Positions 14,158-18,210 of a stretch of 45,682 nucleotides of DNA are shown one piece after another; positions within the stretch are counted from its first letter, which is position 1, and each line of letters opens with the position of its first letter. The stretch comes from an uncultured Oscillospiraceae bacterium (GTDB taxonomy: Bacteria > Bacillota > Clostridia > Oscillospirales > Oscillospiraceae), in assembly GCA_905234625.1 (NCBI GenBank), contig CAJOIC010000043.1, forward strand, positions 1 to 45,682, read 5' to 3'. Under the pieces are notes generated by a model that saw nothing but the letters and a program-made list of their open reading frames with translations, was not told the DNA's origin and ran no database searches. Made by a program: the position numbers and the translations under genes.

Positions 14158-15494
14158 GACTGCCACCACCGTTCCAGCGTCCGGAAGAGGGGGCCCTTTT
14201 CCAGGTGATCCTCGATGCGCTGCTCCAGCTCCTCGCCCCGTTCCTCGATCTGACCCAGGGCGGTCATGAGCTCGCCCTGGGCGCGGAAGAACTCGTCCTG
14301 GGGCTTGAGCCGCCGCCGATATCCGCCGGAGCGGTAGCTGTCGATGACCACCTCATAGCGCTCGTAAGCCCGGGCCACGGCCTCCTCCCAGGAGATGTAC
14401 AGCTCCCGGGCGGCATTTTCCCCCACGCTCCGGGGCAGGCCGGGCTGACCGCACAGGGTCTCCAGCTTCGCCGCCAGGGAGGGGGCGTTCTCCCGGATGA
14501 GGAAGCCGTTCCGGCCGTCCGTGACGCCCTCCGCGGCGCAGCTTCCCTCGATGAGCACCGAGGCCAGGGAGCAGGCCGCCGCCTCCCGCACCACCAGGCC
14601 GTTGGTGTCGAAGGTGGAGGGGAAGAGGAAGAGGTCGGCCCGGCAGTACCAGGCCCGGATGACGTCCCGGTCCCGGATGGAGCCCGTGAAGAAGCATCGG
14701 TCCCCCAGGCCCAGCTTTTCCGCGTACGCCCTGACCTCCGGGCCGTCCGCGCCGTCTCCCACGAAGACCATGCGGAAGTCCGCGGATGTTTCCTTCAGGG
14801 CCGCCAGGGCGTCCAGGATGATGCGCAGGCCCTTGTACCACATGAGCCGCCCCACGAAGAGGAACACGGGCACGCCCTCCGGCAGGTCATAGCCCTCTGC
14901 TGCGGCGGCTATGGCGGCGTCGGAGACCCGTTCCCGGGGTACGTCCACGCCGTTTTCCATGACCAGGTAGTCCCCGTCGTAGCCCAGGGACCGGAGGTTC
15001 TCCCCCGCGCCGCGGCTCACCACCCAGACCTCGTCGCAGGCGCTGATGTTCTGGGCCAGGGCCCTGATGGCGGTCTGCTGCAGGAGCCTGCCGTGGACGG
15101 CCTTGGCGATGTCGATGTCGAATTTCGTGTGGTAGGTGAATACCAGGGGGATATCCAGCACGTTCCGGAACTCCCGGCCCAGCAGGGTGGAGGCCACGGG
15201 ACAGTGACTGTGCAGAAGCTCCACCTTCTCCTCCTTCAGACGGGCGGGCAGCTCCGGGCTGAAGGGTACTCCGGCCACATAGCCCACCACCTTCCGGGTG
15301 TCGATGCTGGGATAGCGCAGCACGGGGAAGGGGAAGCCGCTGTCGTCCGCGTCGGGATAGGCGGGGGTGGCTACCACGGCGTGGCCGTGGCCGGTCTCTA
15401 TATGCCGGGCGTAGTTCGTCACGGCGTTCGCCACGCCGTCGATGACAGGCGGGAAGGAATCGTTCAGAAGACAGATGCTGTGTCGTTGGGCCAT
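14154..15494 (-). CDS. GT4-family glycosyltransferase
   Basis: 446 residues with the two-Rossmann-domain GT-B layout. N-domain: ICLLNDSFPPVIDGVANAV, the usual acceptor-side loop, and HSHCPVASTLLGREF. C-domain: VPVFLFVGRLMWYKGLRII, FVGDGADGPEVRAYAEKLGL, FTGSIRDRDVIRAWYCRADL, and the donor motif PSTFDTNGLVVREAAA, in which the first Glu of EX7E is Asp. It is closest in pattern to diacylglycerol glucosyltransferases and other GT4 enzymes that use a nucleotide-sugar at the cytoplasmic face; acceptor unknown. A C-terminal Glu-rich helix (EERGEELEQRIEDHL) could be a coiled coil. Start chosen at 15494 (GAGGAGGA, 5-nt spacing), not at a codon 30 nt earlier. Confidence 0.88.
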   Translation of the reverse strand: MAQRHSICLLNDSFPPVIDGVANAVTNYARHIETGHGHAVVATPAYPDADDSGFPFPVLRYPSIDTRKVVGYVAGVPFSPELPARLKEEKVELLHSHCPVASTLLGREFRNVLDIPLVFTYHTKFDIDIAKAVHGRLLQQTAIRALAQNISACDEVWVVSRGAGENLRSLGYDGDYLVMENGVDVPRERVSDAAIAAAAEGYDLPEGVPVFLFVGRLMWYKGLRIILDALAALKETSADFRMVFVGDGADGPEVRAYAEKLGLGDRCFFTGSIRDRDVIRAWYCRADLFLFPSTFDTNGLVVREAAACSLASVLIEGSCAAEGVTDGRNGFLIRENAPSLAAKLETLCGQPGLPRSVGENAARELYISWEEAVARAYERYEVVIDSYRSGGYRRRLKPQDEFFRAQGELMTALGQIEERGEELEQRIEDHLEKGPLFRTLERWWQS

Positions 15495-15522
15495 GAGAGT
15501 CCTCCTCGATCGTTTTGACAGC

Positions 15523-15660
15523 ATTATACCACAGACGCGGAGCGTCGTTGTGGTATATATGTAAATCCGGTATAATAGCCTGCGGCTATTATACCACAGA
15601 CGCGGAGCGTCGTTGTGGTATATATGTAAATCCAGTATAATAGCCTGAGGCTATTATACC
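15523..15660. repeat. 65-bp tandem repeat built from two alternating hairpins
   Basis: The block starting ATTATACCACAG begins at 15523 and 15588, and ATTATACC again at 15653: two full 65-bp units and a partial third, nearly identical. Each unit has hairpin 1 (TATACCACA and GACGC arms around GGA, closed by GCGTC and TGTGGTATA) and hairpin 2 (12-bp arms GGTATAATAGCC / GGCTATTATACC around a 3-nt loop). Both strands carry TATAAT, one preceded by TGG. It fills the spacer between two divergent genes. Unit structure is like a MITE or REP family; no coding capacity. Confidence 0.9.
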
Positions 15661-15689
15661 ATGGAGTGAGGCGCAAATCCAGATTGCCG

Positions 15690-15718
15690 TTGCGAAAGCG
15701 CCGGTTTTGCGGTATGAT
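15690..15718 (+). promoter_or_regulatory. Promoter of the barnase-barstar genes
   Basis: TTGCGA (15690-15695), 17-nt spacer, TATGAT (15713-15718), 27 nt before the GTG start, just outside the hairpin repeats. Confidence 0.7.
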
Positions 15719-15745
15719 AGGGTCGATCGGAAAGGGTGATGCGAT

Positions 15746-16348
15746 GTGAACGGAATAAAGCGCCTTATGGCGCTGCTGCTGGTGCTGGTGCTGGCCCTGG
15801 GCCTGACCGCCTGCGCCTTGGATGCGCCGCCGGCTGCGCCGGAGGCGAATGACGGGGCTGTTACGGATGCTGGGGCGACTGCCCCGGGGGAAGCATTCGC
15901 TATATCTGACACGTCCGCGCCGGCTGCGCCGGAGGCGAATGACGAAGCTGCTGCGGAAGTCGAAGCCGCGTTGCCCGAGGAAGCAGAGGCTCCGGCGGAG
16001 GAAGAGGCCCTCGATCCGGAGGGCTGGTACACCGCGAAGGAAGACGTGGCCCTGTACCTGCATCTTTACGGGAAGCTGCCCGGAAACTTCATCACCAAGA
16101 AGGAGGCCCGGGCCCTGGGCTGGTCCGGCGGCGGCCTGGACGGTTACGCCGACGGCAAGTCCATTGGCGGGGACGTATTCGGGAACTACGAGGGCCTTCT
16201 GCCGGAGGGCTCCTATCACGAGTGCGACATCGGCACCATGCACGCCTCCTCCCGCGGGGCGGAGCGCCTGGTGTACTCCGACGACGGCAGGGTCTACTAT
16301 ACCGGCGACCACTACGAGAGCTTCACGCTCCTGTACGGGGAGGAATGA
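15746..16348 (+). CDS. Barnase-family secreted ribonuclease, lipoprotein
   Basis: 200 residues. A lipoprotein signal peptide ends in LTAC with lipid Cys 23. Residues 24-90 are an Ala/Glu/Pro linker with APAAPEAND duplicated. Residues 95-200 align by eye with barnase: GKLPGNFITKKEARALGW, GKSIGGDVFGNYEG, YHECDIG, SSRGAERLVYS, TGDHYESFTLLY. All catalytic positions are kept: Lys 110 (barnase K27), Glu 159 (E73), Arg 170 (R83), Arg 174 (R87), His 189 (H102). It should cleave RNA and be tethered outside the membrane. The GTG start at 15746 has AAAGGG upstream; an ATG 2 nt earlier runs into a stop. The inhibitor-like gene follows with only 2 nt between. Role (nutrition, competition, toxin) not decided. 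Confidence 0.92.
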   Translation: MNGIKRLMALLLVLVLALGLTACALDAPPAAPEANDGAVTDAGATAPGEAFAISDTSAPAAPEANDEAAAEVEAALPEEAEAPAEEEALDPEGWYTAKEDVALYLHLYGKLPGNFITKKEARALGWSGGGLDGYADGKSIGGDVFGNYEGLLPEGSYHECDIGTMHASSRGAERLVYSDDGRVYYTGDHYESFTLLYGEE

Positions 16349-16350
16349 CC

Positions 16351-17028
16351 ATGGGATACGAGATCGATCTTTCCGGCGTTTCCGGCCGGGAGGAGCTCCA
16401 CGCCCGGCTGCGGGCGGCTCTGCCTCTGCCGGACTGGTACGGGAACAACCTGGACGCCCTGCGGGACGTGCTGACGGAGTCCGGCGGAGGATGGGATATC
16501 CGCTTCCGGAACGCCGGCCGCGCTTCGGAGAGCGCGGCGGATTATATCGCGGTCCTGCGGCGGATGTGCGCGGACGCCGCGGCGGAGACCCCGGGACTTA
16601 CCATCGCTTGGGAGGACGACGAAAACGATATGCTTCTCGATCATGCGAAACGCCTACGGGCGGATACTGCAAGACACTATAACTGCGCCCAGTCGGTGCT
16701 GGTCCCCTTCGCTCAGGCGGCGGGGATCGACGAGGAGACGGCGTTCCGTGTCGCGGCGAACTTCGGCGGCGGCATGAAGCGGGCGTCGGTCTGCGGCGCT
16801 GTGACCGGCGGGCTCATGGCCCTGGGGCTCCTGGGGATCGACGACGGTCCCACCGTGGCGGAGTATCACCGCCGCCTGCGTCAGGCCCATGACGGGATGC
16901 TGGACTGCAAGGACCTGCTGCGGGTGAACCAGGAACAGGGCGGCGACCGGGCGGCCCACTGCGACGGCATGGTGTACGAGTGCCTGGAGCTGGTGGAGGA
17001 GCTGGCGCGCCGGGCCGGTAAGCTGTAA
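16351..17028 (+). CDS. Barstar inhibitor domain fused to a C-GCAxxG-C-C redox domain
   Basis: 225 residues. Residues 1-91 match barstar: an N-terminal strand, LPLPDWYGNNLDALRDVLT (24-42), an alpha-rich middle and the last strand LTIAW. Barnase-contact residues Asp 35 and Asp 39 are at the same positions as in barstar; Tyr 29 is Trp. From residue 94 the frame continues without a stop into a C_GCAxxG_C_C protein: Cys 112, CGAVTG (148-153) after ANFGGGM, Cys 186, Cys 204, Cys 211, the pattern of a putative redox or metal-binding family. GGAGG lies 7 nt before the ATG at 16351. An internal ATG at 16630 could start the second domain alone, but its ribosome site (GGAGG, 14 nt away) is far. Barstar neutralises barnase in the cytoplasm; a redox partner is not a known part of this pair. 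Confidence 0.85.
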   Translation: MGYEIDLSGVSGREELHARLRAALPLPDWYGNNLDALRDVLTESGGGWDIRFRNAGRASESAADYIAVLRRMCADAAAETPGLTIAWEDDENDMLLDHAKRLRADTARHYNCAQSVLVPFAQAAGIDEETAFRVAANFGGGMKRASVCGAVTGGLMALGLLGIDDGPTVAEYHRRLRQAHDGMLDCKDLLRVNQEQGGDRAAHCDGMVYECLELVEELARRAGKL

Positions 17029-17064
17029 TCTACTAATTATTTTCTATAAAGGAGAGATCAAATC

Positions 17065-18210
17065 ATGGCGCAGATCACCGATTTGAACATGGAAAAGGAC
17101 CCCGAGACCAGGCCGTATGTGCCCTGGGACATCATCGGCGGCTTCATGACCGATGCCTTCAAGGCCGTGGGCGTGCCCGCGGAGGACGCCGCCATCTGCG
17201 CGGACGTGCTCATGGAGAGCGACCGCCGCGGCATCGAGAGCCACGGCTGCAACCGCTTCAAGCCCATCTACATCGACCGCATCAACGCCGGGATCCAGAA
17301 CCCCGTCACCGAGTATGAGGTGGTGAAGGAGACCCCGACCACCCTCGTCGTGGACGCTCACGACGGTATGGGCATGGTGGCCTCTTACAAGTGCATGAAG
17401 ACCCTCATCGAGAAGGCCCGGACCTACGGCATGGCCATGGGCGCCATCCGCAACTCCACCCACTACGGCATCGCGGGCTACTGGACCACCATGGCCACCA
17501 AGGAGGGCATGATCGGCGTCACCGGCACCAATGCCCGCCCCTCCATCGCCCCCACCTTCGGCGTGGAGAACATGCTCGGCACGAACCCTCTGACCTTCGC
17601 CATGCCCACGGACGAGGACTTCCCCTTCTGCATCGACTGCGCGACCTCCATCACCCAGCGGGGCAAGATCGAGTTCTACGCCCGCAGCGGCATGGACACT
17701 CCGGCGGGCATGGTCATCGGCCATGACGGCTCCGCCATGACGGATTCGGAGCAGATCCTGAAGGACCTGACCGCCGGCAAGGCGGCCCTGGCGCCTCTCG
17801 GCGGCATCGGCGAGGAGCTGGCGGGCTATAAGGGCTACAGCTACGCCACCGTGGTGGAGATCCTCTCCGCGGCGCTGCAGGCGGGTCCCTTCCTGAAGGC
17901 CCTGTCCGGCATCGGTCCCAACGGGGAGAAGCAGCCCTATCACCTGGGCCACTTCTTCATCGTCATCGATCCCGAGGCCTTCTGCGGCCGGGAGACCTTC
18001 GAGAAGATCGCCGGAGAAATCCTGCGGGAGCTCCGCGCCTCCCAGAAGGCCCCCGGACACGACCGTATCTACACCGCCGGCGAGAAGGCCTACCTCACCT
18101 GGCTCTGGCGCAAGGACCGGGGCGTCCCCGTGGGCGAGGCCGTCCAGAAGGAGTTCATCGCCATCCGGGACAAGTACGATCTGCCGTACAAGTTCCCCTT
18201 CGAGGACTGA
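17065..18210 (+). CDS. Malate/L-lactate dehydrogenase family oxidoreductase (Ldh_2)
   Basis: 381 residues, the usual length. This NAD(P)-dependent family (malate, ureidoglycolate, sulfolactate, 2,3-diketogulonate dehydrogenases) has no Rossmann fold. Marks: DRRGIESHGCNRF with the SHG substrate motif, RNSTHYGIAGYWT with the catalytic His, GTNARPSIAPTFG, MLGTNPLTFAMP, and GGIGEELAGYKGYSYATVVE near the cofactor site. Cytoplasmic. It starts 36 nt after the barstar fusion, with AAAGGAGAG upstream, so read-through from that operon is possible, but a functional link is not evident. The 2-keto-acid/2-hydroxy-acid substrate cannot be read from sequence. Confidence 0.9.
   Translation: MAQITDLNMEKDPETRPYVPWDIIGGFMTDAFKAVGVPAEDAAICADVLMESDRRGIESHGCNRFKPIYIDRINAGIQNPVTEYEVVKETPTTLVVDAHDGMGMVASYKCMKTLIEKARTYGMAMGAIRNSTHYGIAGYWTTMATKEGMIGVTGTNARPSIAPTFGVENMLGTNPLTFAMPTDEDFPFCIDCATSITQRGKIEFYARSGMDTPAGMVIGHDGSAMTDSEQILKDLTAGKAALAPLGGIGEELAGYKGYSYATVVEILSAALQAGPFLKALSGIGPNGEKQPYHLGHFFIVIDPEAFCGRETFEKIAGEILRELRASQKAPGHDRIYTAGEKAYLTWLWRKDRGVPVGEAVQKEFIAIRDKYDLPYKFPFED

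What the first reader, a model, noticed from the sequence alone, without database searches (positions are those of the whole stretch)
16351..17028. Barstar inhibitor fused in frame to a C-GCAxxG-C-C redox-type domain
Seen: residues 1-91 match barstar with D35 and D39 at identical positions, and the frame continues with no stop into a Cys-rich domain (C112, C148-GAVTG, C186, C204, C211). The junction is AT-richer than its flanks. I know of no described barstar with such a partner. Inference: the immunity protein may be redox- or metal-gated, or two genes merged by loss of a stop. This is the strongest candidate in the window for a new arrangement.
Basis: partly seen in the sequence, partly recalled or inferred. 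Interest (0 to 1): 0.75.

Follow-up and report, generated by a model that had tools for sequence, protein, structure and literature searches.

The report
Barstar repeatedly fused to unrelated enzymes
A bacterial protein that blocks the cell's own RNA-cutting toxin is joined to a putative redox protein, and in related gut bacteria the same blocker is joined to many other unrelated enzymes, apparently because the toxin-blocker gene pair settles directly in front of resident genes and merges with them.

Summary
The fusion is real. Window 16351-17028 encodes one 225-residue protein, Barstar plus C_GCAxxG_C_C, behind an intact barnase-type gene and ahead of a dehydrogenase gene. The same fusion recurs in three relatives, 62-67% identical: 4 of 35 genomes of the genus.

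The redox partner is not special. In the same genus barstar is fused instead to a GNAT acetyltransferase (10 genomes) or a Nudix domain (2); elsewhere in the family and order to ten other kinds of protein. All 37 distinct C-terminal fusions I held from this order have barnase directly upstream, with its catalytic residues and barstar D35/D39 kept.

The GNAT locus shows intermediates: GNAT alone, GNAT overlapping the barstar stop, and GNAT fused with its own start lost in 9 of 10.

Best reading: a barnase-barstar pair sits in front of resident genes and fuses with them; the halves work independently. Redox gating is not supported. Whether fusion is selected ('immunity lock-in') or neutral is open.

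The parts
15746..16348 (+). barnase-type ribonuclease, 200 aa, GTG start, signal sequence with a lipobox-like LTAC (read by eye)
   Evidence: Pfam Ribonuclease PF00545 E 5.2e-17; aligned to PDB barnase, E 5.6e-23; E73, R83, R87, H102 equivalents present
16351..17028 (+). barstar / C_GCAxxG_C_C fusion protein, 225 aa
   Evidence: same fusion in L032, L033, L034
16351..16617 (+). barstar half (residues 1-89)
   Evidence: Pfam 4-79; strands and helices 2-88 in the AlphaFold2 model; Foldseek best matches are PDB barstars
16618..16689 (+). junction, AT-richer than both halves, holds internal ATG 16630
   Evidence: GC 0.514 against 0.693 and 0.708
16678..17004 (+). C_GCAxxG_C_C half (Pfam match)
   Evidence: PF09719 E 3.1e-24, the only match in this 82% complete genome
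17065..18210 (+). dehydrogenase of the malate/lactate (Ldh_2, name recalled) type, 36 nt behind the fusion gene
   Evidence: nearest NCBIfam models sulfolactate, ureidoglycolate and malate/lactate dehydrogenases, all below cut-off; found at E <= 1e-80 in exactly the 4 of 35 genus genomes that carry the fusion
15690..15718 (+). sigma-70-like promoter match ahead of barnase
   Evidence: 9 of 12 consensus positions; 1 found, 0.6 expected, weak
15523..15652 (.). two tandem 65-nt copies ahead of barnase, with a 26-nt inverted repeat
   Evidence: 97% identical copies, inverted arms 92% complementary; no match elsewhere in this genome at E <= 0.001

Best explanation
This is an exported barnase-type RNase with its cytoplasmic inhibitor, in which the inhibitor gene has merged with the gene standing behind it. 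In this bacterial family a barnase-barstar pair sits directly in front of unrelated resident genes, in the same direction. The resident start codon comes to overlap the barstar stop; a small length change then brings the frames together and the resident gene loses its own start. The product is a two-headed protein: the barstar half binds barnase before export, and the C-terminal half (here the C_GCAxxG_C_C domain) does its ordinary job. Shown: the fusion, its conservation, the unrelated partners, the kept barnase and barstar residues, the unfused and cassette-free states of the GNAT locus, constraint on both halves in most pairs tested. Inferred: export, that one polypeptide is made, that both halves are active, the order of steps, and how the pair moves; for the CGA partner the history is by analogy.
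For: Same fusion plus same dehydrogenase in four genomes. Genus: 25 of 35 genomes have barstar; 16 fused (4 CGA, 10 GNAT, 2 Nudix), 9 not. Family sample: 400 genomes, 138 with barstar, 145 rows, 37 with an open frame over 180 aa; of the 36 of these inspected, 23 are C-terminal fusions, 8 have an N-terminal partner, 5 have an upstream extension that I read by eye as read-through. Partners confirmed by Pfam on one or two representatives per kind. Every locus with a C-terminal tail has barnase directly upstream; the 37 distinct ones keep barnase E73, R83, R87, H102 and barstar D35 and D39. GNAT series: one match in each of 29 of 35 genus genomes, 5 of them distant, 40-42%; of ten cassette-free GNAT loci fetched, four (all among the six genomes whose barstar is elsewhere) share the next downstream gene group with the fused loci, and L344 also shares upstream genes with occupied locus L240; adjacent with ATGA overlap in G215 and G217; fused with no ATG/GTG/TTG at the old start in 9 of 10. 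DUF6847: by eye the same gene lies 21-23 nt behind barstar in G704 and G754 and is fused in G699 of the same genus. M32: the only copy in 4 of 4 fused genomes. dN/dS over 11 pairs: barstar half 0.01-0.65, partner half 0.04-0.31. In L032 the CGA half still begins MSKYL, like the MSKYV of solo homologue L036 and the MSxYL consensus.
Against: No expression or biochemical data. The CGA case itself has no cassette-free comparison: other genus genomes have at most distant CGA relatives (28-36% identity) and no close dehydrogenase. The barstar half of the window/L033 pair is only weakly constrained (dN/dS 0.65). The GNAT tree does not resolve whether fusion happened once or more. Six of the ten cassette-free GNAT loci, the four CGA genomes among them, do not share the downstream gene, partly on short contigs. 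One C-terminal fusion outside the order (barstar-sensor-GGDEF, G1075) has no barnase in the 5.5 kb fetched. No mobile-element mechanism was found. For M32 the flanks of unfused and fused copies differ, so an occupied/empty comparison exists only for GNAT. 7 of the 37 fusions keep a start codon with a Shine-Dalgarno-like sequence near the junction (one of these inside barstar), so separate second products are possible there.
Confidence: 0.72

Rival explanations
1. Redox- or metal-gated immunity: the C_GCAxxG_C_C half senses redox state or binds metal and thereby switches the barstar half on or off.
For: The conserved cysteines of the domain are present; the AlphaFold2 model has only a short linker between the halves.
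Against: Barstar takes GNAT, Nudix, peptidase, PLP-enzyme, GtrA and other partners in the same position, most without a redox centre; the RNase and barstar key residues are the same with every partner.
Confidence: 0.06
2. Purely neutral ratchet (a rival about cause; it shares the anatomy of the best explanation): tight overlapping genes fuse by chance, the fusion is tolerated because the barstar C-terminus is free, and it is hard to reverse once the second start codon is lost; no benefit.
For: Overlap intermediates; unrelated partners; lost second starts; unfused barstars also have unrelated genes close behind them.
Against: Fusions are concentrated on barstar in one family: C-terminal fusions in 23 of 145 barstar rows of the family against 3 of 94 rows elsewhere in the order and 1 of 83 rows elsewhere in the class, counting only rows with frames over 180 aa as candidates. 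RelB usually stands before its toxin, so it is an imperfect control, and gene-overlap frequency was not controlled.
Confidence: 0.4
3. Barnase-dependent control of the partner: pre-barnase in the cytoplasm binds the barstar half and thereby restrains or localises the attached enzyme, so enzyme activity reports on RNase export.
For: Barnase is directly upstream and keeps its catalytic residues in all 37 fusions of the order examined.
Against: Unrelated partners share no pathway; most unfused barstars also have barnase; G1075 has a fusion and no barnase found nearby.
Confidence: 0.1
4. Two proteins are made in the window: besides the fusion, a C-terminal product from the internal ATG 16630.
For: ATG at 16630; a Shine-Dalgarno-like stretch lies upstream but at long spacing; L032 keeps an MSKYL start behind a GAGGAGG.
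Against: No stop between the halves; no in-frame ATG/GTG/TTG in the tested stretch in L033 and in 7 of 37 fusions overall, L033 included.
Confidence: 0.12
5. Assembly or frameshift error.
For: The three named carriers are MAG records and the window genome is 82% complete in 118 contigs; in L032 even the barnase frame runs into barstar without a stop, at a contig edge, which may be an error or a true three-part frame.
Against: Four genomes share the same open junction at 62-67% identity to the window; constraint on both halves in most pairs.
Confidence: 0.02

Closest known systems
Barnase-barstar pairs (Bacillus type; 'incipient TI gene order' in PMC3482391, passages read)
   Same: RNase gene followed at once by its inhibitor gene; same catalytic and inhibitor residues
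   Different: The inhibitor is fused at its C-terminus to an unrelated protein; in the passages read no such fusion is mentioned
C_GCAxxG_C_C family (PF09719 / TIGR01909)
   Same: CGAVTG motif and conserved cysteines, above both cut-offs
   Different: Usually a free protein of about 130 aa; none of the 77 other loci kept carries barstar in the same frame by BLAST
Polymorphic toxin immunity proteins (PMC3482391, passages read)
   Same: Immunity gene directly behind toxin
   Different: There, diversity lies in the toxin tips; here it lies in the protein behind the immunity domain

Membership tests
Barstar (PF01337) | Profile match above cut-off | tested here: met
   57.2 bits, cut-off 23.4
Barstar (PF01337) | Barnase-contacting D35 and D39 (role recalled) | tested here: met
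   Aligned without gap to PDB barstar; 37 of 37 fused barstars keep both
Barstar (PF01337) | Barstar fold | tested here: met
   AlphaFold2 mean pLDDT 93.8; Foldseek top matches 1bgs and other barstars
Barstar (PF01337) | Inhibits its barnase | not testable with these tools
   needs binding or RNase assay
C_GCAxxG_C_C (PF09719 / TIGR01909) | Profile match above cut-off | tested here: met
   84.5 bits against 27; 48.0 against 47.4
C_GCAxxG_C_C (PF09719 / TIGR01909) | Conserved cysteines and CGAxxG motif | tested here: met
   C112, C148-GAVTG, C186, C204; the four cysteines and G149 invariant in 71 sequences
C_GCAxxG_C_C (PF09719 / TIGR01909) | Redox activity or metal binding | not testable with these tools
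   Pfam itself says 'putative'; no PDB match that I would attribute to this half in the 50 Foldseek rows shown
Barnase-type RNase (PF00545) | Profile match and catalytic E73, R83, R87, H102 | tested here: met
   residues in 37 of 37 fused and 61 of 61 unfused loci; residue numbers recalled, placed on the alignment
Barnase-type RNase (PF00545) | Exported | tested here: inconclusive
   Lipobox-like LTAC read by eye in the window; a regular-expression lipobox test is positive in 25 of 37 fused and 42 of 61 unfused loci
Toxin-immunity gene pair | Toxin gene immediately before immunity gene, tightly spaced | tested here: met
   2 nt between stop and start in the window; gaps mostly -11 to +17 nt in 98 loci, chosen for having barnase nearby

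The most novel reading that the evidence does not exclude
Barnase-barstar is a roving cassette that lands in front of useful resident genes and merges its immunity gene with them, so that immunity can no longer be lost or frameshifted without losing the resident enzyme: natural gene entanglement that locks in immunity, repeated with a dozen unrelated enzymes, mostly in one bacterial family.
Probability: 0.35. Interest if true: 0.82.

Novelty: new variant of a known kind. Interest (0 to 1): 0.62.

Why it matters
Linking a toxin's antidote to a useful gene is, from general knowledge, an engineering idea for keeping genetic devices stable; this looks like nature doing it repeatedly, and within one genus cassette-free, adjacent and fused states are all present. 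It turns 'why do gene fusions fix' into a testable question, and it warns annotators that an enzyme in these gut bacteria may carry an RNase inhibitor at its front end.

Tried and rejected
Redox-specific reading: rejected because partners are interchangeable. CGA-dehydrogenase as an old operon that barstar joined: not supported, since none of the 77 other CGA loci (L035-L111) has this dehydrogenase within the flanks held. Plasmid or phage origin: tblastn of P0001 finds only the CGA half, in 5 plasmid and 2 phage records, none covering 80%. PADLOC gave nothing for the fusion or the barnase. Search of the PDB with the CGA profile gave only matches I judge to be chance. Rfam: none in 15400-17200. 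Tree of the GNAT set: number of fusion events not resolved. M32 flank comparison: no shared flanks between unfused and fused loci of genus g73, so no empty-site proof there. Papers: no barstar-enzyme fusion in the listings seen; I read only passages of PMC3482391 and PMC13188914.

Full report
What is there. The frame 16351-17028 encodes one 225-residue protein. Its first part is Barstar and its second part C_GCAxxG_C_C, both above the Pfam cut-offs; the CGA half is the only PF09719 match in this 82% complete genome. Two bases ahead ends a barnase-type RNase gene (15746-16348) and 36 nt behind begins a dehydrogenase gene (17065-18210). The barnase 3' end carries a GGGGAGG just ahead of the barstar ATG, a likely ribosome-binding site. 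AlphaFold2 gives a confident model (mean pLDDT 93.8, pTM 0.72): barstar elements to residue 88, then a helical domain starting at residue 91. Foldseek recognises the barstar half; among the 50 rows shown I see no convincing match to the other half. I had no access to coordinates, so whether the barnase-binding face is free was not tested.

Is it real? A scan of GTDB genome contigs kept 80 loci; three, from red-deer Oscillospiraceae MAGs (L032, L033, L034), carry the same fusion in one frame with the same dehydrogenase behind it. The dehydrogenase is found at E <= 1e-80 in exactly these 4 of 35 genus genomes. Identity to the window protein is 62-67%. In L032 the CGA half still begins MSKYL, like the MSKYV of solo homologue L036, behind a GAGGAGG; L033 has no ATG/GTG/TTG in the tested stretch. 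So the fusion is old enough to have diverged and has partly lost its second start.

The wider pattern. Of 35 genus genomes 25 have a barstar match, and all 25 have barnase just upstream. Four are fused to CGA, ten to a GNAT (nearest NCBIfam: ArsN1/phosphinothricin acetyltransferases, below cut-off), two to a Nudix domain, and nine are unfused (Pfam run on one GNAT and one Nudix fusion). In a 400-genome sample of the family, 138 genomes have barstar in 145 rows; of 37 rows with open frames over 180 aa I inspected 36 (G241:C40 was not fetched): 23 are C-terminal fusions, 8 carry a partner on the N-terminal side (LMW-phosphatase, PAP2, DUF3885, MarR), and 5 have an upstream extension that I read by eye as read-through. 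Rows with frames up to 180 aa were taken as unfused; most were not inspected. Pfam confirms the C-terminal partners on representatives: Peptidase_M32, PALP (NCBIfam: diaminopropionate ammonia-lyase above cut-off; a second, threonine synthase-like, below cut-off), 2Fe-2S thioredoxin-like NuoE (one NuoE model above cut-off), GtrA, DUF169, LMWPc and beta-helix. In a 394-genome order sample, 83 of the 96 barstar genomes lie outside the family, with 94 rows, 11 of them over 180 aa; these were fetched and give three more barnase-linked C-terminal fusions: radical SAM, DUF6847 and one whose tail has no Pfam match. Others among the 11 are tandem barstars or upstream extensions; in G746 my barstar profile found nothing. 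In a 391-genome class sample (73 genomes with barstar, 90 rows, 83 outside the order) three rows outside the order exceed 180 aa; one is a C-terminal fusion, barstar to a periplasmic-binding/GGDEF protein, with no barnase in the 5.5 kb fetched. The habit is thus concentrated in the window's family.

The halves look functional. All 37 distinct barnase-linked C-terminal fusions keep D35 and D39; all 37 neighbouring barnases keep the four catalytic residues; the same holds for 61 unfused loci except one barstar with E for D39. These 98 loci were chosen for having barnase within reach and are enriched for fusions, so 37 of 98 is not a rate; that no C-terminal fusion then in hand lacked barnase is, before G1075 was fetched. 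dN/dS in 11 pairs is 0.01-0.65 for the barstar half (highest in the window/L033 pair) and 0.04-0.31 for the partner half. The partner is often the only copy: M32 in 4 of 4 fused genomes; GNAT in 10 of 10 at E <= 1e-30.

How fusions arise. The GNAT locus shows the steps. One GNAT match is found in each of 29 of 35 genus genomes, 5 of them distant at 40-42% identity. Six genomes have their barstar elsewhere and GNAT on its own; four of these six loci share the gene group behind GNAT with the fused loci (directly or one gene removed), and L344 also shares upstream genes with the occupied locus L240. The GNAT loci of the four CGA genomes, also cassette-free, have other or unrecognised flanks. In the cassette-free loci of those six genomes GNAT has its own ATG, mostly behind a Shine-Dalgarno-like stretch. 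In G215 and G217 barnase, barstar and GNAT are three separate genes, barstar's stop overlapping GNAT's start as ATGA. In G223 and G224 a Nudix domain is fused to barstar and GNAT follows separately. In ten genomes barstar and GNAT are one frame and the old start is no longer ATG/GTG/TTG in nine. DUF6847 repeats this, with the gene recognised by eye: separate by 21-23 nt in two genomes, fused in a third of the same genus. Unfused barstars elsewhere can have unrelated genes hard behind them (by eye an asparaginase with ATGA overlap in L204 and GluQRS-like genes overlapping by 11-17 nt in L185, L187, L188, L189), possible next candidates. For CGA itself no cassette-free locus was found in the genus, so its history is inferred by analogy.

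Why? Unrelated partners argue against any partner-specific gating. Two general causes remain: selection for locking immunity to a useful gene, or a neutral one-way ratchet. I lean slightly to a mixture and leave the cause open.

Relation to known systems. It works like, and by every sequence feature tested here is, a barnase-barstar pair; export is inconclusive and inhibition was not testable. The fusion to interchangeable unrelated enzymes is the new part; I saw no report of it in nine search listings, two of which concern the CGA family only; the library holds open-licence papers only.

Noticed in passing
L032 1-1081 (= G204:C184): The barnase frame continues into barstar without a stop, giving one open frame barnase-barstar-CGA at a contig edge; real three-part frame or error unknown.
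   Followed up: partly
window 15523-15652: Two tandem 65-nt copies with an inverted repeat between the glycosyltransferase-like gene and barnase; no match elsewhere in this genome at E <= 0.001.
   Followed up: partly
L287, L289, L296 (G453, G471): Tandem barstar-like repeats within one protein in another family of the order.
   Followed up: no
L214, L216, L220, L223 (genus g85), L218, L217: Barstar-like domain at the C-terminus of PAP2-like, DUF3885 and MarR proteins (Pfam run on L220, L218, L217 only). They fell outside my barnase adjacency scan or scored too low in it, so barnase linkage was not tested for them.
   Followed up: partly
L211 and L227, L228: LMW tyrosine phosphatase is fused to barstar in both orders (barstar first in G398; phosphatase first in G004, Pfam-confirmed, and by eye in G390); the phosphatase-first loci had no barnase.
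   Followed up: no
L385 682-2871 (G1075): Barstar fused to a periplasmic-binding/GGDEF protein beside FtsH-like and phosphoribosyltransferase-like genes (read by eye), with no barnase in the fetched stretch.
   Followed up: partly
L185, L187, L188, L189 (genus g80 where stated): Barstar stop is overlapped by a GluQRS-like gene by 11-17 nt (named by eye): possible pre-fusion state.
   Followed up: no
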